DNA of 64,000 nt from Kofleriaceae bacterium (GTDB lineage: Bacteria; Myxococcota_A; Polyangia; Haliangiales; Haliangiaceae): positions 1-64,000 of the forward strand of contig JABFXX010000231.1 in assembly GCA_013368795.1 (NCBI GenBank), in the 5' to 3' direction. The position numbers and the translations under genes are program-made. Each line of letters starts with the position of its first letter. The stretch's first letter is position 1. Below are positions 15,156-63,452 of this stretch, piece by piece. The notes below the pieces were generated by a model. The model was not told where the DNA came from. It was given only the letters and a program-made list of their open reading frames with translations, and ran no database searches.

Positions 15156-15169
15156 GCACGGTGTACGCC
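15156..15169 (-). promoter_or_regulatory. Candidate sigma54-type promoter TGGCGTACACCGTGCA (nucleotidyltransferase)
   Basis: GG-N10-GC; 30 nt downstream of dyad 15200-15212; -12 C 16 nt from ATG. Confidence 0.5.
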
Positions 15170-15199
15170 AGACGCAAGTACGGCTCCCGCCCGAAATTG

Positions 15200-15212
15200 C
15201 GCAAGGTCTGCG
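15200..15212 (-). promoter_or_regulatory. Dyad UAS candidate CGCAAGGTCTGCG
   Basis: Same 13-mer recurs at 46553-46565; matches CGCAR-N3-YTGCG. Confidence 0.6.
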
Positions 15213-15246
15213 CCGAGCGGGTCCTGAAGCGCAAGACGCGCCGGAT

Positions 15247-16161
15247 TCAGGGTGCGGTTCGCTCGCTCCGGTTGAACAGCTCTCGCCACCACGAGCTCGG
15301 CCAGTGGACGGCGGTGATCGGTACGAAGTCGAGCTCGCGCGCGGCGCGGGTGCCGTCGAGCACGCCGCCGAAGTGAAAGCGGTGAGGGCCGAGGAGCGGC
15401 GCCGGCACCTTGACGTCGGCGCGATGGCTGCGCGCGATCGCGCGCGAGAGCGGCAACGAATCGCGGCCGGGGATGTTGAACACGCCGACCGCCTTGCTCC
15501 GGGTCGTGAGCGCGAGCGCGTAGGCGGCATCCTCGATTGCGAGCACGTTGACGATCGGATCGAAGCCAAAGGGCCGCAGACACACGGGCGACGACAGGTA
15601 GTCCCAGAGCTGGCTGCCGACATCGGGCGCGACGATCTCGGCGCACCGCACGACCGCGATCTGGAGCCGGCTGCCGATGTGTGCGCAGATCGCGAGATCC
15701 GCCTCGACGCGATCGCGCAGCCATTGGGGCGCCTTCGGCGCGAACTCGAGCGGCGACTTCTCGTCGAGCAAGCTCGACCCGGCATTGAGCGAGTAGACCT
15801 CGCCGGAGCTGCGATACACGAGCCGCCGGATCGACGGGTGGTTCGTGCACGCGACGATCAACTCCCGGGCCGCATCGACCGCCGACGCGCCAGGCTTGCG
15901 TCCGCGCTCTGCCGTGCGCTGGTGCTGCGCGCTGTGCACCACGACTTCGATCCCGAGGTCGCGCGCGTCACTCCAGATCAGCTCGCGGAGGTTGCGCGGA
16001 CGGCTCAGATCCGCCTTCCGGTACACGACGTCGGCGTGCTCGCGTATGGGTCGCTCGCCGGTTCCCGTCGCCAGGATCGTCTCGACCTCGCCCGTCGCGA
16101 TGAGTGCCTCGACGAGCGCTGCGCCCAGTGGAGTCGTCGCCCCGGTGACCATCACACGCAT
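15247..16161 (-). CDS. NAD-dependent epimerase/dehydratase (extended SDR)
   Basis: MRVMVTGATTPLGAALVEALIATGEVETILATG...; Rossmann motif, RRLVYRSSGEVYS; start trimmed to 16161. Confidence 0.85.
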   Translation of the reverse strand: MRVMVTGATTPLGAALVEALIATGEVETILATGTGERPIREHADVVYRKADLSRPRNLRELIWSDARDLGIEVVVHSAQHQRTAERGRKPGASAVDAARELIVACTNHPSIRRLVYRSSGEVYSLNAGSSLLDEKSPLEFAPKAPQWLRDRVEADLAICAHIGSRLQIAVVRCAEIVAPDVGSQLWDYLSSPVCLRPFGFDPIVNVLAIEDAAYALALTTRSKAVGVFNIPGRDSLPLSRAIARSHRADVKVPAPLLGPHRFHFGGVLDGTRAARELDFVPITAVHWPSSWWRELFNRSERTAP

Positions 16162-16196
16162 GGAACCTCCGGTCGTCGGACGAGCAAGCGATATGC

Positions 16197-18626
16197 CTAG
16201 CGCTGCGAACGCGCGGCGTACGCATGTCTTGCCGAGGGGGAGTGACGACGTGATGCCGCGTGCGATGCGAGCGTCTTCGACGGAATCGCGATCTTGAGCG
16301 CCGCCTCGATCGTCTTCGCGTAATGCAGCGTGAGCCCCTCGTAGATGTGAGGCGAGACGTCCTCGCGCACGTCGGGCTCGTTCGCCGCCGGAAGGACGAC
16401 GTCGGTGATGCCGCTGCGCCGGGCGGCAAGCAACTTCTCCTTGAGCCCGCTGACCGGCAGCAGGTGACCGCTGAGCGTGATCTCGCCGGTCATCGCGACG
16501 TGCGGTGACACCGACCGCTCGGTGTACAGCGAGATGAGCGCGGTCGCGAGCACGACGCCCGCCGACGGCCCGTCCTTCGGGATGCCGCCCGACGGGAAGT
16601 GGACGTGGAGGTCCTCGACGCCGAACAGCGCAGCATCGATGCCGTAGGCCTCGGCGCTCGCGCGCACCCAGGTGACCGCCGCCTTCGCGGACTCCTCCAT
16701 CACGTCGCCGAGCTGGCCGGTGAACGTCAGCTTGCCGCGGCCGCGAGGGATCCGCCGCGCCTCGACGAGCAGCGTATCGCCGCCGGCCGGCGTCCACGCG
16801 AGGCCGATCGCGACGCCGGGCTCGCGCGTGCGCTCGGCAAGCTCGGTCTCGGAGCGATACATCGGCACGCCGAGCAGCTTGCGGACACCGGTCGGCGTGA
16901 CGAGGCGGCGACCTCGGCGCGACTCGGCGAGCTGGCGGGCGCGCTTGCGGCAGATCGCGGCGATGTGTTGCTCGAGCTTGCGAACGCCGGCCTCGTGCGT
17001 GTAGCTGCCGATGATCTCGCGGATCGCGGCGGCCTCGAACTGGATGTCGCGCGGCACCGCGAGGCCGTGCTCGGCCGAGACGCGCGGCACGAGGTGGCGC
17101 ACCGCGATCTGCAGCTTCTCGTCCTCGACGTAGCCCGGCAGCTCGAGGATCTCCATGCGATCGCGGAGCGCCGGCGGCAGCGGATCGAGGAAGTTCGCGG
17201 TGCACACGAACAGCACGCGCGACAGATCGAACGGCACGTCGATGTAGTTGTCGTGAAACTTCGCGTTCTGATCCGGGTCGAGCACCTCGAGCAGCGCGGC
17301 GTATGGATCGCCGTGGTGCTCGCGTCCGAGCTTGTCGACCTCGTCGAGCAAGAACAGCGGATCGCGGGCACCGGCGCGCTGCAGGCCGCGCAGGATCTGG
17401 CCCGGCATCGCGCCGACGTACGTCCGGCGGTGGCCGCGAATCTCGGCCTCGTCGTGGACGCCGCCGAGCGACACGCGGACGAACTCGCGCCGCATCGCGC
17501 GCGCCATCGACGCGCCGAGCGAGGTCTTGCCGACGCCGGGCGGACCGACGAGACAGAGCACCGGCGCCTTGAGCCCGGCGTTGAGCTTCTGGACCGCGAG
17601 GAACTCGAGGATGCGCTCCTTCACCTTCGACAGGTCGAAGTGATCCTCGTCGAGGATCGCCGCGGCGCGCTTCAGCTCGATTGTCTTGGACGAGACCTTG
17701 GTCCACGGCAGACTCGCGAGCGTCTCGAGATAGGTGCGCGACAGGCTGTACTCTGGCGAGCCGAGCGACATGTGGCCGATCCGTTCGAGCTCGCGCTCGG
17801 CCTCGGCCATCGCATCCGGCGGCAGCCCCGCCGTGCGCAGGTTCTCGCGCAGCGTCGCGACGCCGGCGAGGCCCTCGTCGCTCTCGCCGAGCTCCTTGCG
17901 GATCGCGCTCAGCTGCTCGCGCAGGAGCAGCTCGCGCTGGCGCTCGCCGATCCGCTCCTCGACCTCCGTGTGGAGCTCGTCGCGCAGCTTCTGGGCGGTG
18001 CGCTCGCGGCGGACGATCTCGATCAGCTTCTCGACGCGCCTGCGGACATCGAGCTCTGCGAGCAGGGCATGCCGCTCGGTCGCGACCTCGACGACACCCG
18101 ACGCGACCACATCGGCGAGCGCACCCGGGTCGCTCAGCTGGCGTGAAAACGCGACGAGGTCATCGGGCAATGTCAACGAGTGAGTGACGAGCTCGGCGAC
18201 CAGCTCGACCAGCCGTGTGCGCAGGATCCCGAACGACGCATCGTCATCATCGGGCGCCATGCTCTCGATCCGCTCGACCCTCGCGCGCAGAAACGGATAG
18301 CGCTGTAGCTCCTCACCGAGGCGGATCCGTCCGATCCCATCGAGTGCGATCGGCATCGCGCCGCCGAGCTCGGGAATGCGGTCGGGCCGGCGGACGATCG
18401 CGACCGTGCCGACCGGGTGAAGGTCCTCGATCCGTGGCTCTTCCTGGTCCGGGTTCTTCTGTGCGGCAACCGCGATCAGATCGCCCTCCTTGAGCGATTC
18501 GACGGCGCGCATGAGCGAGGGACGGTTGAGTACGATCGACCGCGACGCATGTGGAAACACCACTGCGGTCTGCAACGACAAGACGGGAAGCTCGAGGAAT
18601 CGAGGCAGGGCCTTGAGGTCGATCAC
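16197..18626 (-). CDS. lon: ATP-dependent protease Lon
   Basis: LELPVLSLQTAVVFPHASRSIVLNRPSLMRAVESL..., LVGPPGVGKTSLGASMARAM, PKDGPSAGVVLATALISLYTERSV; GTG start at 18626. Confidence 0.95.
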   Translation of the reverse strand: MIDLKALPRFLELPVLSLQTAVVFPHASRSIVLNRPSLMRAVESLKEGDLIAVAAQKNPDQEEPRIEDLHPVGTVAIVRRPDRIPELGGAMPIALDGIGRIRLGEELQRYPFLRARVERIESMAPDDDDASFGILRTRLVELVAELVTHSLTLPDDLVAFSRQLSDPGALADVVASGVVEVATERHALLAELDVRRRVEKLIEIVRRERTAQKLRDELHTEVEERIGERQRELLLREQLSAIRKELGESDEGLAGVATLRENLRTAGLPPDAMAEAERELERIGHMSLGSPEYSLSRTYLETLASLPWTKVSSKTIELKRAAAILDEDHFDLSKVKERILEFLAVQKLNAGLKAPVLCLVGPPGVGKTSLGASMARAMRREFVRVSLGGVHDEAEIRGHRRTYVGAMPGQILRGLQRAGARDPLFLLDEVDKLGREHHGDPYAALLEVLDPDQNAKFHDNYIDVPFDLSRVLFVCTANFLDPLPPALRDRMEILELPGYVEDEKLQIAVRHLVPRVSAEHGLAVPRDIQFEAAAIREIIGSYTHEAGVRKLEQHIAAICRKRARQLAESRRGRRLVTPTGVRKLLGVPMYRSETELAERTREPGVAIGLAWTPAGGDTLLVEARRIPRGRGKLTFTGQLGDVMEESAKAAVTWVRASAEAYGIDAALFGVEDLHVHFPSGGIPKDGPSAGVVLATALISLYTERSVSPHVAMTGEITLSGHLLPVSGLKEKLLAARRSGITDVVLPAANEPDVREDVSPHIYEGLTLHYAKTIEAALKIAIPSKTLASHAASRRHSPSARHAYAARSQR

Positions 18627-18640
18627 GATCGTGGAGCGGT

Positions 18641-18654
18641 GCGCGCTGCGTGCC
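18641..18654 (-). promoter_or_regulatory. Candidate sigma54-type promoter TGGCACGCAGCGCGCA (lon)
   Basis: GG-N10-GC with perfect TGGCACG; 19 nt from dyad 18674-18686; -12 C 15 nt from GTG; weak -12. Confidence 0.5.
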
Positions 18655-18673
18655 AAGGCCTGAATCGCGGTCG

Positions 18674-18686
18674 CGCAACTACTGCG
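18674..18686 (-). promoter_or_regulatory. Dyad UAS candidate CGCAACTACTGCG
   Basis: Perfect CGCAR-N3-YTGCG upstream of lon. Confidence 0.6.
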
Positions 18687-18853
18687 TGAGCCACCGTGCC
18701 TTGCGCTACTTGATCCAGCGCAGCGACGAACGCGAGCGGCTCGTCGAGGACGTCGGCGTGCACGACACCTCGTCCATGTGCATGACCGAGCACCTTCTCG
18801 CGGAGGAACTTCACGATGACCTCCACCGATCTCGTCAGCGCATGCGCGGCGCC

Positions 18854-20002: not shown

Positions 20003-20016
20003 CGCGCCTGCCCCGA

Positions 20017-20030
20017 GCAACTCGCATACC
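20017..20030 (-). promoter_or_regulatory. Candidate sigma54-type promoter GGGTATGCGAGTTGCT
   Basis: GG-N10-GC with TTGCT; -12 C 15 nt from ATG 20002; 20 nt from dyad-like 20051-20063. Confidence 0.45.
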
Positions 20031-20050
20031 CGGCAGGCGCGGGAAAATCG

Positions 20051-20063
20051 CGCATGGGTTGCG
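20051..20063 (-). promoter_or_regulatory. Dyad-like UAS candidate CGCATGGGTTGCG (9/10)
   Basis: One mismatch to CGCAR-N3-YTGCG; 20 nt from GG of the 20017-20030 element. Confidence 0.4.
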
Positions 20064-20080
20064 CGTCAGGGGCGCGCCGT

Positions 20081-20093
20081 CGCAATGCCTGCA
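20081..20093 (+). promoter_or_regulatory. Dyad UAS candidate CGCAATGCCTGCA (9/10)
   Basis: 31 nt upstream of GG at 20125. Confidence 0.55.
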
Positions 20094-20123
20094 TCGCAGT
20101 GACGTCGCGACTCTGCGGGGCTC

Positions 20124-20139
20124 TGGCATCTAGCTTGCG
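20124..20139 (+). promoter_or_regulatory. Candidate sigma54 promoter TGGCATCTAGCTTGCG (CBS-USP operon)
   Basis: GG-N10-GC, close to TGGCACG-N4-TTGCW; 26 nt to ATG 20164 with GAGGAG Shine-Dalgarno in the predicted leader. Confidence 0.65.
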
Positions 20140-20163: not shown

Positions 20164-20595
20164 ATGAGGATCGAGGAAATCATGACGAGGGTCGTGTTCA
20201 CGATCGAGCCCCACCTGCATCTGGACGAGGCCGCTCATCGCATGCATGCCGCGGCCGTTCGTCACCTGGTGGTCGTCGAGCGAGGCTGCGTCGTCGGCGT
20301 GCTTTCGGACCGCGACGTCGAACGGATTCATGGCCTCCGTCACGCCGGGGTCGACGAGAAGTGGACGGTCGCGGATGCGATGAGCTCTCGCGTGATCACG
20401 GCCGCCCCCGAGACGTCGCTGCGTCACGCGGCGCAGCTGCTCCGCGCGCACGTCGTCGATTGCCTGCCGGTCGTCGAGGGCAAGGAGCTCGTCGGAATCG
20501 TCACGACGTCCGACCTGCTCGAGGTGCTCAGCCGCGGCAAGGAACACGCACCTGCGACGCCCGCGCCGGAAGAGCACGGTGTGTCGAGGACCTGA
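20164..20595 (+). CDS. CBS domain-containing protein
   Basis: MRIEEIMTRVVFTIEPHLHLDEAAHRMHAAAVRHLVVVERGCVVGVLSDRDV... two CBS motifs. Confidence 0.92.
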   Translation: MRIEEIMTRVVFTIEPHLHLDEAAHRMHAAAVRHLVVVERGCVVGVLSDRDVERIHGLRHAGVDEKWTVADAMSSRVITAAPETSLRHAAQLLRAHVVDCLPVVEGKELVGIVTTSDLLEVLSRGKEHAPATPAPEEHGVSRT

Positions 20596-20600
20596 GCAGG

Positions 20601-21368
20601 ATGACCCCGCATCGCATTCTCTGCCCGATCGACTTCACGCTGGCATCGGAACAGACGATGCGAATCGCTGCCCGGCTATCGGCGGAGTGGCAGCAGGAGC
20701 TCGTCGTCGCCTACGCGTGCTACCTCCCACGCTCGGCGTTCGCGGGGATCGCCAGGTTGCCGGCCGACATGATGAGACGCCTTCTCGAGGAGGACGAGCT
20801 CGCCCTGGTCGATGCAGCGCAGAGCGCAGGCGAGCTGGGCGCGGCGGCAGTCAGCTCGGCCTTGTACTCGGGCTCGCCGGCCGAGGAGATCGTCGAGGCT
20901 CTCAACGAGGACCCGATGTTCGACCTGGTCGTGATGAGCACGCACGGCCGCTCGGGGCTTCGCCGGATGGTCATGGGCTCGATCACCGAGCACGTCATCC
21001 GTCATGCGCCTTGCTCGGTGCTGGCGATGCGCCGTGACACGCTTCTCGACGACAGCGGGTTTCGCCACGTGCTGTGTGCGCTCGACGTCTCGATCGCATC
21101 CCGCCACGCGCTGCTGTACGCCTCGAACCTCGTCGAGCGGGATATCGGCCGCATCACGCCGCTGCGCATGAGCGAGTCGATCGTCGAAGTGCCGGTCAGT
21201 ATCACCGTCCGCGAGATCGCGTGCGCGGTCGACCGCACGCGCACGATCGATCTCGTGATCCTCGCCGGCGACTCGCTCCCGAAAAGTCGCGCACGTCTCG
21301 CGCGGATCGCGACGAACGTTCTGCGCGAGACGTCGTGCCCGGTGCTCGTCGCGCGCGCAAGAGAATGA
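20601..21368 (+). CDS. Universal stress protein (tandem UspA, second domain degenerate)
   Basis: HRILCPIDFTLASEQTMRIAARLS...LVVMSTHGRSGLRRMVMGSITEHVIRHAPCSVLAMR, followed by FRHVLCALDVSIASRHALLYA. Confidence 0.9.
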   Translation: MTPHRILCPIDFTLASEQTMRIAARLSAEWQQELVVAYACYLPRSAFAGIARLPADMMRRLLEEDELALVDAAQSAGELGAAAVSSALYSGSPAEEIVEALNEDPMFDLVVMSTHGRSGLRRMVMGSITEHVIRHAPCSVLAMRRDTLLDDSGFRHVLCALDVSIASRHALLYASNLVERDIGRITPLRMSESIVEVPVSITVREIACAVDRTRTIDLVILAGDSLPKSRARLARIATNVLRETSCPVLVARARE

Positions 21369-31274: not shown

Positions 31275-31945
31275 TCGGCGAGCGCTCCTTGGCGCGCGGC
31301 AAGCCGGATCATGTCGACGATCGAGTGCGTCGCCAGCTTCTTCATGATGCGCTGGCGATGGGTCTCGACGGTGCGGCGCGCGATGAACAGCCGCGTTCCG
31401 ATCTCGTCGTTCGTGTAGCCGCGAATCAGAAGGTCGAAGATCTCGCGCTCGCGACGCGTCAGGCGCTGCAGCGGCATGTCGCCGGCGCCGTTGATGCGGG
31501 CGAGCACCTCTTCGCGCGCGGCTCGCGGCGGCAGATAGCGACCGCCGGTGAGCACGAGGCGAATCGCCTCGATGATCTCCTGTGGTGGCTGCGTCTTGAG
31601 CGCGTAGCCAGAAGCTCCCGCGCGCAGCATCGCCGCGATCATGACCGGCTCGTCGAGCACCGAGAGCGCGAGCACCTTGCAGGTGCGCACCTCGAGAAGC
31701 TGCGCGGCGAGGGAGATGCCGGACGTCGACGGAATGAGGACATCGAGGACAACGACGTCCACAGGATCGCGCCGAAGCATCGATACCGCGTCCGTTGCAT
31801 TCCCCGCCTCGCCGACAACTTCCAGATCTGGTTCTTGCGATAGCAGTTGAGCGAGCCCCGCCCGGAAGAGCGGATGATCGTCGACTACCAACACCTGTGA
31901 CCTGAGTACCGCGACCATTTGGGCCTGCACCCCAGCAGTTAGCAT
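31271..31945 (-). CDS. NarL/FixJ family response regulator (LuxR HTH)
   Basis: VLVVDDHPLFRAGLAQLLSQEPDLEVVGEA...; LTRREREIFDLLIRGYTNDEIGTRLFIARRTVETHRQRIMKKL; 4-nt overlap with 29325-31274. Confidence 0.93.
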   Translation of the reverse strand: MLTAGVQAQMVAVLRSQVLVVDDHPLFRAGLAQLLSQEPDLEVVGEAGNATDAVSMLRRDPVDVVVLDVLIPSTSGISLAAQLLEVRTCKVLALSVLDEPVMIAAMLRAGASGYALKTQPPQEIIEAIRLVLTGGRYLPPRAAREEVLARINGAGDMPLQRLTRREREIFDLLIRGYTNDEIGTRLFIARRTVETHRQRIMKKLATHSIVDMIRLAARQGALAE

Positions 31946-32013
31946 GCCATCTCGTGGACTACCGAAGATCGAGTTGATGAGTACCAGCGAGGCTCACGAC
32001 AGCTCCCTCGATC

Positions 32014-32026
32014 CGCAATTGCTGCG
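32014..32026 (-). promoter_or_regulatory. Dyad CGCAATTGCTGCG upstream of NarL-type regulator
   Basis: Perfect CGCAR-N3-YTGCG; no good phased GG-N10-GC (closest TGGTACTCATCAACT lacks GC). Confidence 0.45.
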
Positions 32027-35436: not shown

Positions 35437-35526
35437 CAGCGCGGCCCGTGGTGCAGGGCATGTTCCAGCCGCCGATCAAGCTCCCGAGACAACATGCGCA
35501 TCCATCGCGGTGTTCGAGAATGACGG

Positions 35527-35539
35527 TGCAGGTAATGCG
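35527..35539 (+). promoter_or_regulatory. Degenerate dyad UAS candidate TGCAGGTAATGCG (8/10)
   Basis: Found at the predicted position, 31 nt upstream of GG 35571. Confidence 0.35.
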
Positions 35540-35569
35540 CGAATTGCGCTCGAATCAACTCTCCTCGCG

Positions 35570-35585
35570 TGGCAGAGACCTTGCT
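35570..35585 (+). promoter_or_regulatory. Candidate sigma54 promoter TGGCAGAGACCTTGCT
   Basis: Strong TGGCA and TTGCT, GG-N10-GC; 22 nt from -12 C to ATG 35606. Confidence 0.6.
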
Positions 35586-45868: not shown

Positions 45869-46297
45869 ATGAACGAAGCGTTCCTCCGCAACCTCGTCGG
45901 CGTGGTCCTGACGATCGCCGTGATCACCGCGCTCGGGCTCTGGTACGGAATGACGCGGTCGGCGATGCCGAAGCACTCGTTCGCGCCGGAGCAGGCGGCC
46001 GCGAAGACACCCGAGGCGCTGGGCGCGTCGGTGTTCGAGCGCAAGGGCTGCGCGGGCTGTCACTCGGTCGACGGCTCGTCGCGCGTCGGGCCGTCGCTGC
46101 ACCGCGACTTCGGATCGATGGTCGCGCTCGCCGATGGTTCGACGGTCGAGATGAACGAGGCGTACATCCGCGAGTCGCTGCACTCGCCGCGTGCGAAGGC
46201 GAGGCCGGGCTTTCCCGACGTGATGCCGTCGTTCGACGGCGTGCTCAGCGAGCGAGAGACGGATGCGCTCGTCGCGTACATCGCGTCGCTTCGCTGA
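45869..46297 (+). CDS. Membrane-anchored mono-heme cytochrome c
   Basis: N-terminal TM helix; [31 protein letters not shown] (CXXCH); [27 protein letters not shown]. Confidence 0.9.
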
Positions 46298-46507
46298 TCA
46301 TCCCGCGTGCGTGTCCTCCGGCCCCTCGGCACCGCGAAGCATGCGCAAGAGTCCACCGAGGACGCCGGCGCCGAGCGCGACGAGAACGATCATCGCGGAT
46401 GCGCTCGCGAATGAATGCTCCTGCTGGGTCACGGAACCGAACAGCAGGAACGCGAAGCACAAGGGGACCATGACGAGGGCGAGTACGGCTGCCATGACCT
46501 TCCTCAT
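46298..46507 (-). CDS. Small two-TM membrane protein (start 46507 or 46495)
   Basis: MRKVMAAVLALVMVPLCFAFLLFGSVTQQEHSFASASAMIVLVALGAGVLGGLLRMLRG. Confidence 0.6.
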   Translation of the reverse strand: MRKVMAAVLALVMVPLCFAFLLFGSVTQQEHSFASASAMIVLVALGAGVLGGLLRMLRGAEGPEDTHAG

Positions 46508-46508
46508 T

Positions 46509-46522
46509 GCTTCGGCCGTGCC
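46509..46522 (-). promoter_or_regulatory. Candidate sigma54-type promoter TGGCACGGCCGAAGCA
   Basis: Perfect TGGCACG, GG-N10-GC, weak -12; 30 nt from dyad 46553-46565. Confidence 0.45.
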
Positions 46523-46552
46523 AGCAAAATCGGCCAGTTAAGAGCGATTTCG

Positions 46553-46565
46553 CGCAAGGTCTGCG
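46553..46565 (-). promoter_or_regulatory. Dyad UAS candidate CGCAAGGTCTGCG
   Basis: Perfect match, identical to 15200-15212. Confidence 0.6.
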
Positions 46566-46570
46566 TAGAA

Positions 46571-46744
46571 CTACGTACGAGGCGGCAGGGCCTGCGCACG
46601 GGGCCGATCGTCGTCGAACAGGATGCGGCGCGGCGGCGTGTCGACGTCGTCGAGCTGGCCGGAACGGACCGTCCACACGAACGCAGCGACGGCGCCGCCA
46701 GCGATCAGGAGCGCGAGCGGAAGCACGATGTAGAGCGCGATCAC
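46571..46744 (-). CDS. ccoS: cbb3 oxidase maturation protein CcoS
   Basis: GTG start; [45 protein letters not shown] is the typical CcoS layout; 4-nt overlap with ccoI. Below the ORF-track cutoff. Confidence 0.9.
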
Positions 46745-51974: not shown

Positions 51975-52153
51975 GGGCGATCTCCTGCGTCGTCGGCGAG
52001 TGGGAGCTGAGCGGCGTGCGCGTGCTCGGCAGCGCGGCGCTTGCCGCCGTGGCGGACCGCGACCGCGGCGAACACGGCGACGAAGAGCACGAGCGCGAGC
52101 TCGGCGAAATGGGTCGGTGTCAATGCAGACACCAGCTCGGATAGCCGGATCAC
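51971..52153 (-). CDS. ccoQ: cbb3 oxidase small subunit CcoQ-like
   Basis: GTG start VIRLSELVSALTPTHFAELALVLFVAVFAAVAVRHGGKRRAAEHAHAAQLPLADDAGDRP; 4-nt overlaps both sides. Confidence 0.8.
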   Translation of the reverse strand: MIRLSELVSALTPTHFAELALVLFVAVFAAVAVRHGGKRRAAEHAHAAQLPLADDAGDRP

Positions 52154-54309
52154 TGGATACCTCCTTGCGTGCTCTTGCGGATGTCGACGCCGAGCCGCTG
52201 CATGTACGCGATGAGTGCCATCACCTCCTTGCTCTGCATCCCTGCCGGACCGCCCTGCGTTTGCAGCTGGCCGGCGAGCGTCGTCGCCTGATCGCGCGCC
52301 ATTTGCGCGCCGTGCTGGAGCGCCTCCGCGCCGTACGGCACGCCGAGCATCGCCATCGCGTCGATGCGGCGCTGGATGACATCCCACTCGATGTCGTCGT
52401 GGAGCAGGTGCGGGTAGCTCGGCATGACCGAGCCCGGCGACGTGTTGCGCGGGTTCTCGAAGTGCCGCAGGTGCCAGAGCTCGTCGCGCCGGCCGCCCTC
52501 GCGCGCGAGGTCAGGGCCCGTGCGCTTGCTGCCCCACTGGAACGGATGGTCGTAGATGAACTCGCCGGGCCGCGAGTACTCGGCGGGCTTGCCGTTCATG
52601 CCGTAGCGGACCGTCTCGTCGAGGAACGGCCGCACCATCTGCGAGTGGCAGTTGTAACAACCCTCGCGGATGTAGATGTCGCGGCCGTAGAGCTCGAGCG
52701 GCGTGTACGGCTTGACGCTCGCGATGCGCGGCACGTTGTCGCCGATGAGGAACGTCGGCAGGATCTCGAACAGCGACGCGATGACGACCGCGAGCGTGAC
52801 GAGCACGGTGAACAGCGCCGGCAGGCCCTCCCACTTGCGGTGCCAGTGGGTCTTCGCCTCGGCCTTCGCCGCCGCCTTCACCTCGCGGATCATCGGCGGC
52901 ACGCTGACCTCGACCTCCTCGTACGTCGCCGGGCGCGACTTCCAGGTCTTGTAGATGTTGTAGGCGCCGATCGCGAGGCCCGTGATGTAGAGCGAGCCGC
53001 CGATGGCGCGCAGCCAGTACATCGGCACGAGGCGCGTCACCGTCTCGAGGAAGTCGGGATACATGAGGCGGCCGGTGTGGTCGAACGCGCGCCACATGAG
53101 GCCCTGCGTGATGCCCGCGGCCCACATCGCGACGACGTAGATGACGATGCCGATCGTCGCGACCCAGAAGTGCGTCGTCGCGAGCTTCTTCGAGTAGAGC
53201 TTGGTCTGGTACAGGCGCGGGACGAGCCAGTAGATCATCCCGAACACCATGAAACCGACCCAGCCGAGCGCGCCGGCGTGGACGTGGGCGATGTTCCAGT
53301 CCGTGTAGTGCGACAGCGCGTTGACGCTCTTCACCGAGAGCATCGGGCCCTCGAACGTCGCCATGCCGTAGAACGTGATGCCGACGACGAAGAACTTGAG
53401 GACCGGGTCCTCGGCGACGCGATTCCATGCGCCGCGCAGCGTGAGCAGGCCGTTCAGCATGCCGCCCCACGACGGCATCCACAGCATCACGCTGAAGATC
53501 ATGCCGAGGGTCGAGGCCCACTGCGGCAGCGCCGTGTAGTGCAAATGGTGCGGGCCCGCCCAGATGTAGATGAAGACGAGCGACCAGAAGTGGAGGATCG
53601 ACAGCCGGTAGCTGAACACCGGCCGCTCCGCTGCCTTCGGCAGGAAGTAGTACATGAGGCCGAGGAACGGCGTCGTCAGCACGAACGCGACGGCGTTGTG
53701 GCCGTACCACCACTGCATGAACGCGTCCTGCACGCCGGCGAACAGCGAGTAGCTCTTGAACATGCCCGCGGGGATCGCGAGGTTGTTGAAGATGTGGAGG
53801 ACCGCGATCGTGATGATCGACGCGATGTAGAACCACAGCGCGACGTAGAGGTGCTTCTCGCGGCGATCGCGCACCATCGCGAAGAAGTTGACGGCGAACG
53901 CGACCCACACGACCGCGATCGCGAGATCGATCGGCCACTCGAGCTCGGCGTACTCCTTCGCCTGGGTGAAGCCGAGCGGCAGCGTGATCGCGGCCGCGAC
54001 GATGATCAGCTGCCAGCCCCAGAAGTGGAACTTCGACAGCCACTCGATCGGTCGCGCCTTGAGCAGTCGCTGCGACGAGTAGTAGACGGCCGCGAAGATG
54101 CCGTTGCCCGCGAATGCGAAGATCACCGCATTCGTGTGCAAGGGACGCAGGCGGCCGAACGAGAAGTACGGCGCGAAGTTCAGGCTCGGTAGCGCGAGTT
54201 GCAGCGCGCACCACAGGCCGACGAGCATGCCCACGGCACCCCACACGATCGTGGCGGTGACGAACTTGCGGACGATCGCGTCGTCGTAGCGAAGACTGGC
54301 GTTCGACAT
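52150..54309 (-). CDS. ccoNO: cbb3 cytochrome c oxidase CcoN-CcoO fusion
   Basis: CcoN core (LHTNAVIFAFAGNGIFAAVYYSSQRL; GHNAVAF; IWAGPHHLHYTALPQW) continuous with CcoO (DIYIREGCYNCHSQMVRPFLDETVRYG) in one 719-aa ORF. Confidence 0.96.
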   Translation of the reverse strand: MSNASLRYDDAIVRKFVTATIVWGAVGMLVGLWCALQLALPSLNFAPYFSFGRLRPLHTNAVIFAFAGNGIFAAVYYSSQRLLKARPIEWLSKFHFWGWQLIIVAAAITLPLGFTQAKEYAELEWPIDLAIAVVWVAFAVNFFAMVRDRREKHLYVALWFYIASIITIAVLHIFNNLAIPAGMFKSYSLFAGVQDAFMQWWYGHNAVAFVLTTPFLGLMYYFLPKAAERPVFSYRLSILHFWSLVFIYIWAGPHHLHYTALPQWASTLGMIFSVMLWMPSWGGMLNGLLTLRGAWNRVAEDPVLKFFVVGITFYGMATFEGPMLSVKSVNALSHYTDWNIAHVHAGALGWVGFMVFGMIYWLVPRLYQTKLYSKKLATTHFWVATIGIVIYVVAMWAAGITQGLMWRAFDHTGRLMYPDFLETVTRLVPMYWLRAIGGSLYITGLAIGAYNIYKTWKSRPATYEEVEVSVPPMIREVKAAAKAEAKTHWHRKWEGLPALFTVLVTLAVVIASLFEILPTFLIGDNVPRIASVKPYTPLELYGRDIYIREGCYNCHSQMVRPFLDETVRYGMNGKPAEYSRPGEFIYDHPFQWGSKRTGPDLAREGGRRDELWHLRHFENPRNTSPGSVMPSYPHLLHDDIEWDVIQRRIDAMAMLGVPYGAEALQHGAQMARDQATTLAGQLQTQGGPAGMQSKEVMALIAYMQRLGVDIRKSTQGGIQ

Positions 54310-54324
54310 CGCCCGCGCTGCATC

Positions 54325-54339
54325 GCAACTCCCGTGCCC
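54325..54339 (-). promoter_or_regulatory. Candidate sigma54-type promoter GGGCACGGGAGTTGC (ccoNO)
   Basis: GG-N10-GC, TTGCG at -12; 31 nt from dyad 54370-54382; -12 C 16 nt from ATG. Confidence 0.55.
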
Positions 54340-54448
54340 GCGCGTACGTGCCCTCCCGTACGCATTGCGCGCAACTCTTGCGTCGATCAGGGGTCGCGCA
54401 GCAACCGGTGCGCGAGTTCGCGTACGGGAGCCCGCGTACGCGTGGCAC
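54334..54448. repeat. Approximately 30-bp imperfect inverted duplication centred on the ccoNO/mini-ORF divergent promoter
   Basis: 11-bp perfect arms CTCCCGTACGC (54353-54363) / GCGTACGGGAG (54420-54430), plus CGCGTACG and GTGCC blocks; four CGTACG palindromes at 54343, 54357, 54421, 54435, symmetric about 54391.5. Confidence 0.8.
54370..54382 (-). promoter_or_regulatory. Dyad UAS candidate CGCAACTCTTGCG (perfect palindromic arms)
   Basis: CGCAA-CTC-TTGCG. Confidence 0.65.
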
Positions 54449-54458
54449 GCCCGGTGCT
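54443..54458 (+). promoter_or_regulatory. Candidate sigma54-type promoter TGGCACGCCCGGTGCT (mini-ORF)
   Basis: Perfect TGGCACG, GG-N10-GC; 16 nt to ATG 54473; 31 nt from degenerate dyad 54400-54412 (AGCAACCGGTGCG). Confidence 0.5.
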
Positions 54459-54472: not shown

Positions 54473-54583
54473 ATGGAAACTCGCCAGCGCAGAGACTCAT
54501 GGGCCATCCCCTTCGAAGTGATCCTGTGGACCACCTACGGCGTCGGGCTGATCATGGTGATGGTCGTCGTGCTGATGCACTGA
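54473..54583 (+). CDS. 36-aa single-TM peptide divergent from ccoNO
   Basis: METRQRRDSWAIPFEVILWTTYGVGLIMVMVVVLMH*; mirror-image promoter with ccoNO. Confidence 0.6.
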   Translation: METRQRRDSWAIPFEVILWTTYGVGLIMVMVVVLMH

Positions 54584-56508: not shown

Positions 56509-56519
<11 letters not shown>

Positions 56520-57609
56520 CGAACCTCACGACGAAGATGGTCCCCGGATTTGCGTCCTCGATCCAGATCGAGCCGCCCTGCGCCGCGGTCGCGACCTTGC
56601 AGAATGCGAGGCCGAGGCCGTGCCCGGCGCGACCGCTCGTGCCGCGGACGAACCGTTCGAAGACCTGCGCGCGCAGCTCCTCGGGGATGCCGGCGCCGGC
56701 ATCGGCGATCCGGATCTCGACGCGCGAGTCGACCAGCCGCGCAGAGATGCGGACGCTCGAGTCCTCGGGCGCGTGACGGATCGCGTTGTCGACGATGTTC
56801 TCGATCACCCGTCGCACGAGATCGGCGTCGGCCTTTGCCGCGAGCGCAGGGGCGTCGACCTCGAGCGTCACGTTCGAGGCGCGCGCGCGTACCTCCATCG
56901 CCGTCACGATGTCCGCGACGAGCGGCGGCAGGACGACCCGGTCGAGCTTGGGCGCGAGCGCTCCCTCGTCGTCCTTGCTGAGATCGAGGAGGTTGCCGAT
57001 CATCCGCGAGAGCGCGCGCGTGTCCGACTGGATCTGCGACGCGGCGCTGCGCCCTCGCTCGGTCGCACCCGGATCGCGGGCGACGCGCTGCGCGTTCAGC
57101 TCGATCGCGTGGACCGGGTTCTTGAGGTCATGGACGAGGAACGCGATCAACTGCTCGCGCTGGAGCTGCAGCCGCATCACGTCGTCGCGCTGCTTGCGGA
57201 TGAGCTCGTACAGCTCGGTGCGCTCGGCGGAGATCCGGCGCAGCTTCATCGCCGCCTCGACGCGCATCACCAGCTCGTTGGGCCGGAATGGCTTCGTGAT
57301 GTAGTCGTCGCCGCCGGCGAGCTTTGCGCGGTCGAACGTGTCGACGTCGCGCTGCGCCGTGACGAACAGGATCGGGACGTCGGTGCCGCCGGGAAGCGCT
57401 CGCATCCGCTGGCAGGCGACGACGCCGTCCATCCCGGGCATCCGAACATCGAGCAGCACGCAGTCGGGATGCTCGCGCTCGAACGCCGCGATGCCCGCCT
57501 CGCCGCTCGGCGCGAGGACGACACGGTAATCCTCGTCCTCGAGCGTGGCCTGGGCGAGCGCGCGATTCTCTGCGTTGTCGTCGACGACAAGCACGACCGC
57601 CTGACTCAT
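56509..57609 (-). CDS. REC-histidine kinase
   Basis: VVLVVDDNAENRALAQATLEDEDYRVVLAPSGEAG; LIAFLVHDLKNPVHAIELNAQRV; GHGLGLAFCKVATAAQGG. Confidence 0.92.
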
Positions 57610-57788: not shown

Positions 57789-57804
57789 TGGCACGATCGT
57801 CGCT
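57789..57804 (+). promoter_or_regulatory. Candidate sigma54-type element TGGCACGATCGTCGCT (ntrC-like gene)
   Basis: Perfect TGGCACG, GG-N10-GC; weak -12; 14 nt to ATG 57817. Confidence 0.4.
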
Positions 57805-57816: not shown

Positions 57817-59222
<1,406 letters not shown>

Positions 59223-59226
<4 letters not shown>

Positions 59227-60386
59227 CGCTGCTGGAGGAGCTGCTGGCGTACGTCGCTCTCGATGACGCGGACCGCACCCGGCTCCGCGCTCTTCACGAA
59301 CGACTCGCGCCCAGCTTCCCGGCGATCGCCAATCTTTTCTACGACGCGATCAACGCGAGCCCGGGCGCGCGCAGCGTGCTGCATGGGCCGGCGCAGATCG
59401 CACGCCTGCACGGCACGCTCGTCGACTGGATGTCGACGGGGTTACTCGGACCCTACGACGATCGGTTCTACGAGAAGCGCTCTCGCATCGGCCGCCGCCA
59501 CGTCGTGATCGGGCTCGAGCATCAGTACATGTTCGCGGCGATGAACACGCTGCGCACGGCGTATCACGATCAGATCATCGTGCTCTATCCGTCGGACCAG
59601 GCGCTCGCGGTCATGCGCTCGGTCAACAAGCTCCTCGACGTCGAGCTCGCGATCATGGTCCAGCACTACCACCTCGACTCCGAGGAGAGGCTGATCGCAC
59701 GCGAGCGCACGATCCAGGGCGATCGGATTCTCGCACTGCAGACGATGTCGGCGGGGCTCGCGCACGAGCTCCGCAACCCGCTCAACGCCGCGAAGCTGCA
59801 GCTCGAGCTGCTCGAGCGGCGGCTGCGCAAGCAGAGCGACGAACCGCGGCTGCTCGAGCCGGCGGAGCTCGCGCAGAGCGAGATCCAGCGCCTGACGAAC
59901 CTGCTCGGCGACTTCCTCGCGTTCGCGCGGCCGTCGGAGCTCAACCCGGAGCGTCACGACGTCGCCGCGATCGTGCGCCACGTCGTCGAGCTCGAGCGGC
60001 TCGGCGCCGAGCGCAAGGGCGCCAAGCTCGAGGTCATCGACAGTCCGCGCGAGCTCCACGCCGACATCGATGCGCCGAAGATGCACCAGATCCTGCACAA
60101 CCTCGTTCGCAACTCGGTCGAGGCCGTGCCGGCGGGCGGTCACATCGCCGTCGGCCTCGTATCCCATCCGACCTCGTTCAAGCTGCGGGTCGAGGATGAT
60201 GGCCCCGGGATTCCGGACGCGGTCCGCCAGCGCATCTTCGAGCCGTTCTTCTCGACCAAGGAGGGCGGTACCGGGCTCGGCATGTCGATCGTGCACAGCC
60301 TCGTGACGCTGCACGGCGGCGTGATCGAGCTCGACACGAGTCCGCGCGGAACGCGCTTCGACGTGTCGATTCCCGTGCGCAGCTAG
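59223..60386 (+). CDS. Protoglobin-domain (globin-coupled) sensor histidine kinase
   Basis: LAPSFPAIANLFYDAINASPGARSVLHGPAQIARLHGTLVDWMSTGLLGPYDDRFYEKRSRIGRRHVVIGLEHQYMFAAMNTLR (protoglobin-type), then MSAGLAHELRNPLNAAKLQLELL and GGTGLGMSIVHSLVTLHGG; GTGA overlap with upstream gene. Confidence 0.9.
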
Positions 60387-60393
60387 CGGCCGA

Positions 60394-60915
60394 TCATTCG
60401 CGCTTGCCGGGAAGCTCGTCGTTGTCGACGAGCCAGCGCACGATGTCCTTCGCGGAGATGACGCCGATCAGGCTGCCTTCGCACGACACGATCAGCACGT
60501 GATGCAGGTCTTCGAGCGTCATCAGGCTCGCGGCATGCGCCACCGTTGCCCGCTCGTCGAGTGTCAACGCGAGCGGCATCATGACGTCGCGCGCGGTCTT
60601 GAGCGTCCACGCGGTGGCATCGGCATCGAGGTGCTCGACCAGGTCTGACTTCGTCACGATGCCCTGCGGACGACCTCGTTCATCGATGATCGGAAGGCAG
60701 CCGATGTGCTCGCCGAGGAACAGAGCGGGCAGGGCCGACACCCCGAGGTCCGGGTCCGCGCAGACCAGGCGCCGCGACATGATCGCGGTCACCGGAACGT
60801 CGTGCGCGATGGTCACCCGGCGCGGCGGCCTCGCCAGCTCGTCGTGACCGCACGGATGGACGTCGCGTACCCGAAGCCGTCCCTGTCCGTCGTACACACG
60901 TTGTGTCGTTGCCAT
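60394..60915 (-). CDS. CBS domain protein
   Basis: VPVTAIMSRRLVCADPDLGVSALPALFLGEHIGCLPIIDERGRPQGIVTKSDLVEHL; second CBS IGVISAKDIVRWL; start trimmed to 60915. Confidence 0.92.
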   Translation of the reverse strand: MATTQRVYDGQGRLRVRDVHPCGHDELARPPRRVTIAHDVPVTAIMSRRLVCADPDLGVSALPALFLGEHIGCLPIIDERGRPQGIVTKSDLVEHLDADATAWTLKTARDVMMPLALTLDERATVAHAASLMTLEDLHHVLIVSCEGSLIGVISAKDIVRWLVDNDELPGKRE

Positions 60916-60939
60916 GCCGACCTCCTGAACGGGGAGAGA

Positions 60940-60954
60940 GCAAGGTTCGAGCCT
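60940..60954 (-). promoter_or_regulatory. Candidate sigma54 promoter AGGCTCGAACCTTGCT
   Basis: GG-N10-GC, TTGCT; 31 nt from dyad 60985-60997; AGGAGG Shine-Dalgarno in the predicted 13-nt leader. Confidence 0.6.
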
Positions 60955-60984
60955 GCACATACCGGCCATCCCGCACGCCGAACC

Positions 60985-60997
60985 CGCAACTCCTGCG
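60985..60997 (-). promoter_or_regulatory. Dyad UAS candidate CGCAACTCCTGCG
   Basis: Perfect match. Confidence 0.65.
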
Positions 60998-61114
60998 CTG
61001 CTCGCTCCGGCGAGGCGAGCATCTGCGCGATCCGGATCGCAGGATGCCCTCCATGATTCGGGAGATGGCGTACGTAGGATTGCGCGCAGGCGTCGCGCAG
61101 GATTCTCGTGGACG

Positions 61115-61127
61115 CGCAAGGGCTGCG
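61115..61127 (+). promoter_or_regulatory. Dyad UAS candidate CGCAAGGGCTGCG (norB)
   Basis: Perfect match, 52 nt upstream of GG 61180 (31 plus two helical turns). Confidence 0.55.
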
Positions 61128-61178
61128 CATTTGTGGGCCGGCGTCATCGCGTTCTCGCATAGATACGGCGTCGCTCTC

Positions 61179-61194
61179 GGGCGCAGGTTCTGCA
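61179..61194 (+). promoter_or_regulatory. Candidate sigma54-type promoter GGGCGCAGGTTCTGCA (norB)
   Basis: GG-N10-GC (61180-81 / 61192-93); 16 nt to ATG 61209. Confidence 0.45.
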
Positions 61195-61199
61195 GAACC
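61186..61199. repeat. 14-bp perfect palindrome GGTTCTGCAGAACC
   Basis: Directly upstream of norB start, overlapping the -12-like element. Confidence 0.75.
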
Positions 61200-61208
61200 G
61201 GCAGGCAA

Positions 61209-63452
61209 ATGCGTCGCCTCTGGTTGGGCCTCTCTCTCGTCTTGCTCCTGTCGTTCGGCATCCTCGCGTGGGTCGGCTCGCGGATCTATCAGCTCGCGCC
61301 GCCGATCCCCGATCGTGTCGTCACCACCGACGGTCGCGTCGTGTTCGGGTCGGGCGAGGTCGAGGCCGGTCAGGATGTCTGGCGGTCGTTCGGCGGTATG
61401 GAGCTCGGCTCGATCTGGGGCCACGGCTCGTACGTGGCGCCGGACTGGACCGCCGACTGGCTGCACCGCGAGCTCGTCGCGGTGCTCGACCAGTGGGCGA
61501 CCTCGGCGAGCGCGAACAGCTACGCCGCGATGGGAGCGGAGGACCAGGCCGCCTTGCGCGAGCGACTCCGCCGCGAGACGCGCCTCAACACCTACGATCC
61601 GGCGACTCGCACCATCACGGTGTCGCCCGAGCGCGCGCAAGCGATCGACGCGAACGTCGCGTACTACGCCCAGCTGTTCGCACAGGGCAACGATGACTAC
61701 GCGCTGCCGAGCGGGACGGTCACCGAACCCGCGCGCGCACACGCGCTGTCGGCGTTCTTCTTCTGGTCGGCGTGGGCCGCCGCGACCGATCGCCCGGGCG
61801 ACACCGTCACGTACACGAGCAACTGGCCGCACGAGCCGCTGATCGCGAATCGGCCGACGCCCGATTCGATCGTGTGGACCGGCGTCAGCATCCTGATGCT
61901 CCTCGGCGGCATCGGTGCACTCGCGTTCTGGCACGCCGCGAAGCGCAAGGAGGAGGTGCCCGACGTGCTGCCTGCGGCAGACCCGCTGCTCGGCTCGTCG
62001 CCGACGCCGTCGCAGCGCTCGACGGTGAAGTACTTCTGGGTCGTGTGCGGCCTGCTCGTGCTGCAGATCTGCATGGGCATCATCACCGCGCACTACGGCG
62101 TCGAGGGTAACGGCCTGTTCGGCATCGCGCTCGCGAAGGTGCTGCCGTACTCCGCGGCGCGCTCGTGGCACGTCCAGCTCGGCATCTTCTGGATCGCGAC
62201 GGCATGGCTCGCCGCTGGCCTCGCGATCGCGCCGTCGGTCGGCTCGGAGCCGCGCGGGCAACGCCTGCTCGTCAACGTCCTGTTCGCGGCCCTCGTCCTT
62301 GTCGTCGGTGGTTCACTCGCCGGCCAGCTGCTCGCGATCAACGGCCAGCTCGACGCCAGCGGCGTGTGGTGGTTCGGCCACAGCGGCTACGAGTACATCG
62401 ACCTCGGCCGCATCTTCCAGTACGCGCTGCTCGCGGGTCTCGTCCTCTGGGTCGTCCTCGTCGCGCGCGCCCTGTGGCCGGCGCTCAAGCGCCGCGACGT
62501 GCAGCGGCCGCTGCTGATCATGCTGCTCATCTCGACCATCGCGATCGGTGCCTTCTACTTCGCGGCGCTCGGCGCGGGACGGCACACGAACCTCGCGATC
62601 GCCGAGTACTGGCGCTGGTGGGTTGTCCACCTCTGGGTCGAGGGCTTCTTCGAGGTGTTCGCGACCGTCATCATCGCGTTCCTCTTCGCGCGCCTCGGCC
62701 TCGTCCGCTACGCGACGGCGGGTCGCGCATCCGTCCTCGCTGCCTCGATCTTCCTCGCCGGTGGCGTCATCGGCACGCTCCACCACCTCTACTTCAGCGG
62801 CACGCCGACGGTCGCACTCGCGCTCGGCTCGGTGTTCAGCGCGCTCGAGGTCGTCCCGCTCGTGTTCCTCGGCTACGACGGCTGGGAGAACTGGCGCCAC
62901 ACGCGCGCGACGCCGTGGATGCGCCAGTACCGGTGGCCGATCTACTTCTTCATCGCGGTCGCGTTCTGGAACGTCGTCGGCGCCGGCCTGTTCGGCTTCA
63001 TGATCAACCCGCCGGTCGCGCTCTACTACATGCAGGGCCTCAACACGACGCCGGTCCACGGCCATACCGCGCTGTTCGGCGTGTACGGCATGCTCGGCCT
63101 CGGCCTCGTGCTGTTCACCGTCAAGTCGGTGCACCCGAACCTCGTGTGGCCGGAGCGCCTGCTCAAGATCGGCTTCTGGGCGATCAACATCGGGCTCGGC
63201 GCGATGGTGCTGATCAGCGTGCTGCCGGTCGGCCTCCTCCAGACCTGGGCGGCGATCGACGTCGGCTACTGGTACGCGCGCAGCTCGGAGTTCCTGCACA
63301 CCGGGCCGATGGAGACGTTGCGCTGGCTGCGCATCATCGGAGACACGGTGTTCGCGATCGGTGCCATCGTGTTCGTCGTGGCCATCGCCAGGATGACCAT
63401 CGGACGGCGGCGCGAGGGTGCGAACCTCGAATCCACGCACCCGGCCGCGTGA
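61209..63452 (+). CDS. norB: Quinol-dependent nitric oxide reductase large subunit (qNOR, NorB/NorZ)
   Basis: GSGEVEAGQDVWRSFGGMELGSIWGHGSYVAPDWTADWLHRE; WHVQLGIFWIATAWLAAGL; WVVHLWVEGFFEVFATVIIAFLF; GTLHHLYFSGTP; VHGHTALFGVYGMLGLGL. Confidence 0.96.
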   Translation: MRRLWLGLSLVLLLSFGILAWVGSRIYQLAPPIPDRVVTTDGRVVFGSGEVEAGQDVWRSFGGMELGSIWGHGSYVAPDWTADWLHRELVAVLDQWATSASANSYAAMGAEDQAALRERLRRETRLNTYDPATRTITVSPERAQAIDANVAYYAQLFAQGNDDYALPSGTVTEPARAHALSAFFFWSAWAAATDRPGDTVTYTSNWPHEPLIANRPTPDSIVWTGVSILMLLGGIGALAFWHAAKRKEEVPDVLPAADPLLGSSPTPSQRSTVKYFWVVCGLLVLQICMGIITAHYGVEGNGLFGIALAKVLPYSAARSWHVQLGIFWIATAWLAAGLAIAPSVGSEPRGQRLLVNVLFAALVLVVGGSLAGQLLAINGQLDASGVWWFGHSGYEYIDLGRIFQYALLAGLVLWVVLVARALWPALKRRDVQRPLLIMLLISTIAIGAFYFAALGAGRHTNLAIAEYWRWWVVHLWVEGFFEVFATVIIAFLFARLGLVRYATAGRASVLAASIFLAGGVIGTLHHLYFSGTPTVALALGSVFSALEVVPLVFLGYDGWENWRHTRATPWMRQYRWPIYFFIAVAFWNVVGAGLFGFMINPPVALYYMQGLNTTPVHGHTALFGVYGMLGLGLVLFTVKSVHPNLVWPERLLKIGFWAINIGLGAMVLISVLPVGLLQTWAAIDVGYWYARSSEFLHTGPMETLRWLRIIGDTVFAIGAIVFVVAIARMTIGRRREGANLESTHPAA

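What the first reader, a model, noticed from the sequence alone, without database searches (positions are those of the whole stretch)
15156..61209. Candidate sigma54 regulon: 13-bp dyad CGCAR-N3-YTGCG phased to GG-N10-GC promoters
Seen directly: exact CGCAR-N3-YTGCG sites at 3482, 13348, 15200, 18674, 32014, 46553, 54370, 60985 and 61115, and one-mismatch sites at 20051, 20081, 57717 and 61182, all outside the CDSs as I start them. A by-eye scan of coding DNA found no exact copy, but that scan was not exhaustive. Gap from dyad edge to GG of a GG-N10-GC element: 31 (ccoNO, CBS 60915, CBS-USP 20164), 30 (15140, 46507), 19 (lon), 20 (gene at 20002), 52 (norB). Eight-of-ten dyads also fall at exactly 31 for 35606, 54473 and 57817. 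Gaps of 20/31/52 differ by whole helical turns. Established: enhancer-binding proteins bind dyads upstream of -24/-12 promoters (TGGCACG-N4-TTGCW). Inference: one enhancer-binding protein controls these units. The degenerate sites were found after the spacing was noticed, so they are weaker evidence.
Basis: partly seen in the sequence, partly recalled or inferred. Interest (0 to 1): 0.92.

Follow-up and report, generated by a model that had tools for sequence, protein, structure and literature searches.

The report
Clustered low-oxygen NmpR regulon, σ54-dependent
The repeated DNA motif is the landing site of NmpR, an activator tied to a haem-globin gas-sensor kinase and already known from one myxobacterium; in this uncultured relative at least a dozen likely NmpR promoters, set out by a strict spacing rule, are packed into one 67-kb stretch around the sensor genes.

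Summary
The dyad is real, lies mostly between genes, and sits at fixed distances from −24/−12 (σ54) promoters. The NtrC-type response regulator at 57817–59226 is the reciprocal best hit of Myxococcus xanthus NmpR. NmpR's published, EMSA-tested box is GCGCA-N5-TGCGC, the same dyad, usually in tandem 14–15 bp apart. In this contig 14 σ54-like sites have such a box in register, against 0.5 in shuffles, and 7 have two boxes. Across 47 loci (46 from relatives) the box-to-promoter distances follow a ~10.5-bp helical repeat, and second boxes sit 29–31 bp away.

The motif is not enriched genome-wide. It is concentrated in this one contig: 13 exact copies against 1.3 expected. Targets match or extend the M. 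xanthus regulon: cbb3 oxidase, CBS, USP and nmpR itself; new candidates are lon, norB and a hibernation factor.

The clearest difference is the wiring. In M. xanthus the globin kinase NmpU acts through NmpS on NmpR. Here one protein joins an NmpU-type globin to an NmpS-type transmitter and overlaps nmpR. This is a new variant of a known system. Binding, phosphotransfer and oxygen response here are inferred.

The parts
57817..59226 (+). nmpR orthologue: NtrC-type response regulator (receiver + sigma54-activation AAA + Fis-type HTH); taken to start at ATG 57817
   Evidence: Pfam; reciprocal best hit with M. xanthus NmpR, 58%; recognition-helix region conserved
59223..60386 (+). globin-coupled histidine kinase: NmpU-type protoglobin + NmpS-type transmitter, overlapping nmpR
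   Evidence: Pfam Protoglobin, HisKA, HATPase; tree and identities
56509..57609 (-). REC-HisKA-HATPase kinase, NmpS-like architecture but a separate kinase lineage
   Evidence: next to nmpR also in L068 and L069
54588..56519 (-). PAS-HisKA-HATPase-REC hybrid kinase, syntenic in L068 and L069
57717..57804 (+). nmpR promoter: boxes 57717 and 57746 (one mismatch each), sigma54 element 57789-57804 TGGCACGATCGTCGCT; gaps 60/31
54324..54458 (.). divergent promoters of ccoNO (-) and a 36-codon ORF (+) sharing boxes 54370 (exact) and 54400 (1 mismatch); sigma54 elements 54339 to 54324 (-) and 54443-54458 (+); gaps 31/61 on both sides
52150..54309 (-). ccoNO fusion (cbb3 oxidase), first gene of cco operon (ccoP 51348, ccoG 49984, DsbD-like 49143, ccoI 46741, small ORF 46571 in the position of ccoS)
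   Evidence: Pfam; ccoS by position and size only
20016..20139 (.). divergent promoters sharing boxes 20051 and 20081: CBS-USP (+, 20124, gaps 31/61) and leftward gene 18854 to ~20002 (-, 20031, gaps 20/50)
20164..21368 (+). CBS-domain protein (20164-20595) and universal stress protein (20601-21368)
   Evidence: Pfam
35452..35585 (.). divergent promoters sharing boxes 35497 and 35527 (one mismatch each): 76-aa ORF 35606 (+, gaps 31/61) and phosphoribosyltransferase 34720-35436 (-, gaps 30/60)
18640..18686 (-). lon promoter: box 18674, sigma54 element 18655 to 18640 TGGCACGCAGCGCGCA, gap 19
16197..18626 (-). lon protease
   Evidence: Pfam
15155..15212 (-). promoter of nucleotidyltransferase 14220-15140: box 15200, sigma54 element 15170 to 15155, gap 30 (weak second box at 60)
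46508..46596 (-). promoter of a 65-aa ORF 46298-46495 (probable membrane protein): boxes 46553 and 46584, gaps 30/61
   Evidence: start codon uncertain
60939..60997 (-). promoter of CBS protein 60394-60915: box 60985, sigma54 element 60954 to 60939, gap 31
61085..61194 (+). norB promoter: boxes 61085 (1 mismatch) and 61115 (exact), sigma54-like element 61179-61194, gaps 82/52; weaker than the others
61209..63452 (+). norB-type NO reductase (quinol-dependent type, from fusion architecture)
   Evidence: Pfam NorB cytochrome c-like domain + COX1
31934..32026 (-). box 32014 with strong sigma54 element 31949 to 31934 TGGCATGCTAACTGCT (gap 65) before a LuxR-type response regulator; N-terminus uncertain
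13348..13435 (+). box 13348 and imperfect sigma54-like element at 13420 (gap 60) before hemerythrin 13493; tentative

Best explanation
The dyad is the NmpR box. In a myxobacterium, probably of family Kofleriaceae, a globin-coupled histidine kinase (59223-60386) senses oxygen, or another haem ligand such as NO. It controls phosphorylation of the adjacent NtrC-type regulator NmpR (57817-59226). Active NmpR binds two boxes about 30 bp apart. The nearer box lies about 2 or 3 helical turns (19-21 or 30-31 bp) upstream of the -24 GG, so that NmpR faces sigma54-RNA polymerase and opens the promoter. Divergent genes share one pair of boxes. The regulon is a physically clustered low-oxygen set: cbb3 oxidase, CBS and USP proteins, nmpR itself, and probably lon, norB, a phosphoribosyltransferase and, just beyond the window, a ribosome hibernation factor. 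Shown here: boxes, spacing, orthology, conservation in relatives, NmpS-like transmitter. Shown elsewhere (M. xanthus): NmpR binding to this box, sigma54 dependence, hypoxic induction, and haem binding needed for NmpU activity. Inferred: binding and phosphotransfer in this organism, its signal, and the sign of the oxygen response.
For: The NmpR box in M. xanthus is GCGCA-N5-TGCGC, usually paired 14-15 bp apart, sigma54-dependent, with a regulon of CBS, USP, CcoI/cbb3 and HemN-hemerythrin genes (PMC11841059). Reciprocal best hits: 58%, E 2e-171 against a next-best of 49%, 1e-126; back-search 58%, 4e-169, then the paralogue at C689:64783 with 55%, then 48%. Recognition helix region GISVRxxQYRL is shared by most NmpR orthologues and not by the other EBPs compared, apart from one close to it in L092. 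14 in-register promoters against 0.5 in shuffles, 7 with both boxes. In 47 loci, 0.47 sigma54 partners per dyad against 0.00-0.15 for 16 control dyads; 10.5-bp phasing, jitter p<0.001 without this contig; second box at +/-29-31, 50 against 6.7 expected. Same boxes precede ccoNO and nmpR in G086, nmpR in L068 and L069, nmpU in M. xanthus and Archangium, and CBS and USP genes in others. Transmitter 44-48% identical to NmpS of Myxococcia and 27% to M. xanthus NmpU, with NmpS-like DHp helix.
Against: No enrichment of the box across the whole genome. Two NmpR paralogues could share or split the targets. Some sites (3482, 46040, 32014, norB) fit the spacing rule poorly or not at all. The assembly is a fragmented MAG with 6.9% contamination. 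Pooled loci are not fully independent: several come from one genus-level group. The degenerate sites and my gap classes were chosen with the data in view. Two other kinases beside nmpR could feed it.
Confidence: 0.88

Rival explanations
1. The boxes are read mainly by the second NmpR paralogue (C689:64756-66153, just outside the window), or by both as mixed oligomers, so control is split between two signals.
For: Paralogue 82% identical to the window's NmpR, similar HTH, and in the same cluster, behind a hibernation-factor gene that has a box and a sigma54 site upstream.
Against: The window's NmpR is the better match to M. xanthus NmpR and carries its own paired boxes and the globin kinase; no kinase gene was seen beside the paralogue in what remains of the contig.
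Confidence: 0.3
2. NmpR is driven by a multi-step relay here too: globin kinase to the REC-kinase at 56509 to NmpR, as in M. xanthus, with no direct phosphotransfer from the globin kinase.
For: A REC-HisKA-HATPase protein with NmpS architecture lies divergently next to nmpR, with a hybrid kinase beyond it, and both are near nmpR in L068 and L069 too.
Against: Its kinase domain is not of the NmpS lineage, whereas that of the globin kinase is; many relatives show only globin kinase plus nmpR in the fetched stretch.
Confidence: 0.25
3. The dyads are chance, composition-driven palindromes and the promoter matches are picked out of a GC-rich sequence.
For: The motif is not enriched genome-wide and GG-N10-GC is common in 68% GC DNA.
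Against: Local density P about 1e-9 in the contig; composite test 14 against 0.5; tandem and helical spacing reproduced in other genomes; same genes targeted.
Confidence: 0.02
4. The palindromes are sites of another local regulator, such as the LuxR-type response regulator at 31271-31945, and NmpR is a bystander.
For: A LuxR-type regulator lies in the cluster behind a box.
Against: The box equals the tested NmpR box; boxes follow nmpR loci across the phylum and are locked to sigma54 promoters, which need an EBP.
Confidence: 0.03

Closest known systems
NmpRSTU system of Myxococcus xanthus (McAllister et al. 2025, PMC11841059; Bretl et al. 2018, PMC6211767)
   Same: Orthologous NmpR; same dyad; tandem boxes 29-30 bp start to start; sigma54 promoters; protoglobin sensor kinase; overlapping targets (cbb3/CcoI, CBS, USP, hemerythrin, its own genes).
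   Different: Globin sensor fused to an NmpS-type transmitter and overlapping nmpR, no NmpT found in the window; targets clustered in one 67-kb stretch; candidate targets lon, norB, HPF and PRTase are not among the genes discussed for M. xanthus; divergent genes share box pairs; second NmpR paralogue.
AfGcHK of Anaeromyxobacter sp. Fw109-5 (globin-coupled oxygen-sensor kinase)
   Same: Protoglobin-HisKA-HATPase architecture; haem-ligand histidine position conserved (H93 here, aligned with that of NmpU).
   Different: AfGcHK is the NmpU homologue in a genome that also has NmpS and NmpT; its regulon was unknown as of PMC11841059. The window protein has the other kinase lineage.
NorR (sigma54 activator of NO reductase)
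   Same: Sigma54-dependent EBP linked to NO-reductase genes (general knowledge).
   Different: NorR is controlled by its own GAF domain in response to NO (PMC2941729); here the EBP has a receiver domain and a partner kinase.

Membership tests
NmpR regulator | Reciprocal best hit with M. xanthus NmpR, clearly ahead of other EBPs | tested here: met
   (58%; next-best non-paralogue 48-49%)
NmpR regulator | Receiver + sigma54-activation + Fis-type HTH domains, conserved recognition helix | tested here: met
NmpR regulon | GCGCA-N5-TGCGC boxes, perfect GCA-N5-TGC core | tested here: met
   most sites keep the core, outer G and C positions are partly degenerate
NmpR regulon | Two boxes per promoter 14-15 bp apart (29-30 bp start to start) | tested here: met
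   7 of 14 promoters have both in-register boxes; lon and CBS 60915 show one
NmpR regulon | sigma54 promoter downstream in the same orientation, and rpoN in the genome | tested here: met
NmpR regulon | NmpR binds the boxes and activates the genes under hypoxia | not testable with these tools
   needs gel shift and reporters
NmpRSTU relay (four proteins) | Separate NmpU (globin kinase), NmpT (two receivers) and NmpS (REC-kinase) | tested here: not met
   one globin kinase with NmpS-type transmitter; REC-kinase 56509 is of another lineage; no two-receiver protein among the window genes scanned with Pfam; the rest of the genome was not searched for one
Globin-coupled histidine kinase | Protoglobin domain with haem-ligand histidine joined to HisKA-HATPase | tested here: met
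   H93 invariant; aligned with NmpU
Globin-coupled histidine kinase | Haem binding and oxygen-dependent autophosphorylation | not testable with these tools
   needs purified protein

The most novel reading that the evidence does not exclude
Outside the Myxococcus type of system, the NmpR pathway is a two-protein system in which the globin sensor acts directly on NmpR through an NmpS-type transmitter. Because in the M. xanthus model oxygen-bound NmpU turns the pathway off through NmpS, the direct version must have the opposite sensor polarity (kinase active without oxygen) if it serves the same response. Its regulon in this genome has been gathered into one promoter cluster governed by a helical-register spacing rule that holds across the phylum.
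Probability: 0.5. Interest if true: 0.65.

Novelty: new variant of a known kind. Interest (0 to 1): 0.5.

Why it matters
It extends a regulon defined in one species to several families of Myxococcota. It gives a simple spacing rule for finding NmpR targets (paired boxes 29–31 bp apart, nearer box in ~10.5-bp register with the −24 element). It suggests that a four-protein relay in M. xanthus and a two-protein system elsewhere do the same job with re-sorted domains, which makes sensor polarity and partner choice testable.

Tried and rejected
Genome-wide enrichment of the dyad or of dyad plus GG-N10-GC: not found (201 against 279 control; 105 against 201 control). Most dyad+σ54 hits outside the contig look like background; plausible exceptions are C582 (USP, gaps 21/61) and C47 (4Fe-4S protein, gaps 19/50). 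A low σ54 score threshold (8.5) gave unreadable background and was raised to 12–13.5. The REC-kinase at 56509 was considered as NmpS because of its architecture; the tree does not place it there. That tree is a short search without bootstraps, and long branches lie among the outgroup rows. No structure prediction was run: it would not decide the question.
Full report
WHAT WAS CHECKED. The dyad CGCAR-N3-YTGCG occurs 10 times in the window. All listed coordinates and dyad-to-GG gaps were reproduced. The genome (9.8 Mb MAG, 723 contigs, 90% complete, 6.9% contamination) has 201 exact copies and 279 of the reversed control pattern, so there is no global enrichment. The window holds 10 where 1.25 are expected and the whole 67,573-bp contig 13 where 1.3 are expected. 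The signal is therefore local.

PROMOTER ARCHITECTURE. With a simple −24/−12 score, 14 σ54-like sites in the contig have a box (at most one mismatch in the eight core bases) at 19–21, 30–31 or 60–62 bp, and 7 of them have two such boxes. 200 dinucleotide shuffles give 0.5 on average (max 3) and none with two; seven control dyads give 0–4. The gap classes were chosen with this contig in view, so the pooled analysis is the fairer test. In most of the clear promoters the −24 element lies about 28–40 bp upstream of the start codon: CBS-USP (gaps 31/61), ccoNO (31/61), a 36-codon ORF divergent from ccoNO (31/61), nmpR (31/60), the 35606 ORF (31/61), a phosphoribosyltransferase (30/60), a 65-aa ORF (30/61), a nucleotidyltransferase (30, weak 60), lon (19), CBS 60915 (31) and the leftward gene near 20002 (20/50). 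Divergent promoters share one box pair in three places in the window and in a fourth beyond it.

INDEPENDENT TEST IN RELATIVES. Loci around globin kinases were collected from other genomes. In 47 non-duplicate loci (902 kb, this contig included), the box CGCA-N5-TGCG has 0.47 strong σ54 partners within 120 bp per copy, against 0.00–0.15 for 16 control dyads. Distances repeat at about 10.5 bp: 19–21, 30–34, 41–44, 60–63, 72–75, 84–86. Rayleigh R is 0.45–0.59 with jitter p<0.001 for the 10.5-bp period, also without this contig; a period near 14 bp fits about as well in some subsets, so the period itself is not sharply determined. Second boxes stand at ±29–31 bp in 50 cases against 6.7 expected, with a lesser peak at 19. 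The pooled loci include groups of close relatives, so the p-values are optimistic.

IDENTITY OF THE REGULATOR. A literature search led to NmpRSTU of M. xanthus. There NmpR, an NtrC-like regulator, binds GCGCA-N5-TGCGC, mostly as two boxes 14–15 bp apart (5 in pilR, 24 in nmpU). It activates σ54 promoters of a CBS-protein operon containing nmpR, of nmpU, a USP gene, a CcoI/cbb3 operon, hemN-hemerythrin and pilR (PMC11841059). The window EBP and M. xanthus NmpR are reciprocal best hits by a wide margin. A second NmpR, 82% identical, lies about 5.5 kb downstream of the first, beyond the window. The same boxes precede nmpR in G086, L068, L069 and others, ccoNO in G086 and L102, nmpU in M. xanthus and Archangium, and CBS and USP genes elsewhere.

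WIRING. In the M. xanthus model NmpU (globin kinase) inhibits NmpS (REC-kinase), which phosphorylates NmpR. Here the gene overlapping nmpR encodes a globin kinase whose transmitter is 44–48% identical to NmpS transmitters of Myxococcia and 27% to M. xanthus NmpU. It groups with NmpS and not NmpU (SH-aLRT 89 for the set with NmpS, 98 for the NmpU set; quick tree) and has the NmpS-like DHp helix HExRNPLNAAxLQL. The haem-ligand histidine is invariant in the aligned relatives. Polyangium has globin-PAS-kinase with nmpR alongside. The simplest reading is that the globin kinase acts directly on NmpR, with the sensor sign reversed relative to NmpU. This is inference, and which arrangement is ancestral is not resolved.

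TAXONOMY. Nearest named loci are a Kofleriaceae MAG (L069, NmpR 81%) and a deltaproteobacterial MAG (L068), so the window is most likely from Kofleriaceae, Myxococcota.

VERDICT. The finding is real and the inference correct, but the system is known in its main lines. New are the clustering, the spacing rule across the phylum, the candidate targets (lon, norB, HPF, phosphoribosyltransferase) and the re-sorted sensor kinase. The literature searched is an open-access subset, so earlier descriptions may exist elsewhere. Interest 0.5.

Noticed in passing
L017:4756-6153 (contig C689:64756-66153): Second NmpR paralogue (82% identical) just beyond the window, behind a hibernation-factor gene (L017:4369-4701, Ribosomal_S30AE) that has a box at gap 61 from a good sigma54 element.
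   Followed up: partly
54473-54583 (+): 36-codon ORF that looks like a single membrane span (METRQRRDSWAIPFEVILWTTYGVGLIMVMVVVLMH) behind a clear NmpR-type promoter, divergent from ccoNO; a weak relative lies near ccoI in L068 (802-903). Possible small oxidase-associated protein.
   Followed up: partly
L204:1640-2227 (C582) and L206:1047-2183 (C47): Likely further NmpR targets elsewhere in the genome: a universal stress protein (gaps 21/61) and a 4Fe-4S protein (gaps 19/50), the latter on a contig that also encodes a succinyl-CoA-ligase-like domain.
   Followed up: partly
L054:12295-13737 and homologues in L051, L052, L055: Wax ester synthase/diacylglycerol acyltransferase genes behind boxes and sigma54 elements in another family, beside USP, CBS and Host_attach-family genes; recalls hypoxia-dormancy regulons (from memory).
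   Followed up: partly
L086:10001-11572; similar split matches in L085, L088, L089, L092, L093: Polyangium protein with globin-PAS-HisKA-HATPase architecture next to nmpR; relatives show a similar insert between globin and kinase matches.
   Followed up: partly
46040-46052: Exact dyad inside a cytochrome c coding sequence; no good promoter in register.
   Followed up: no
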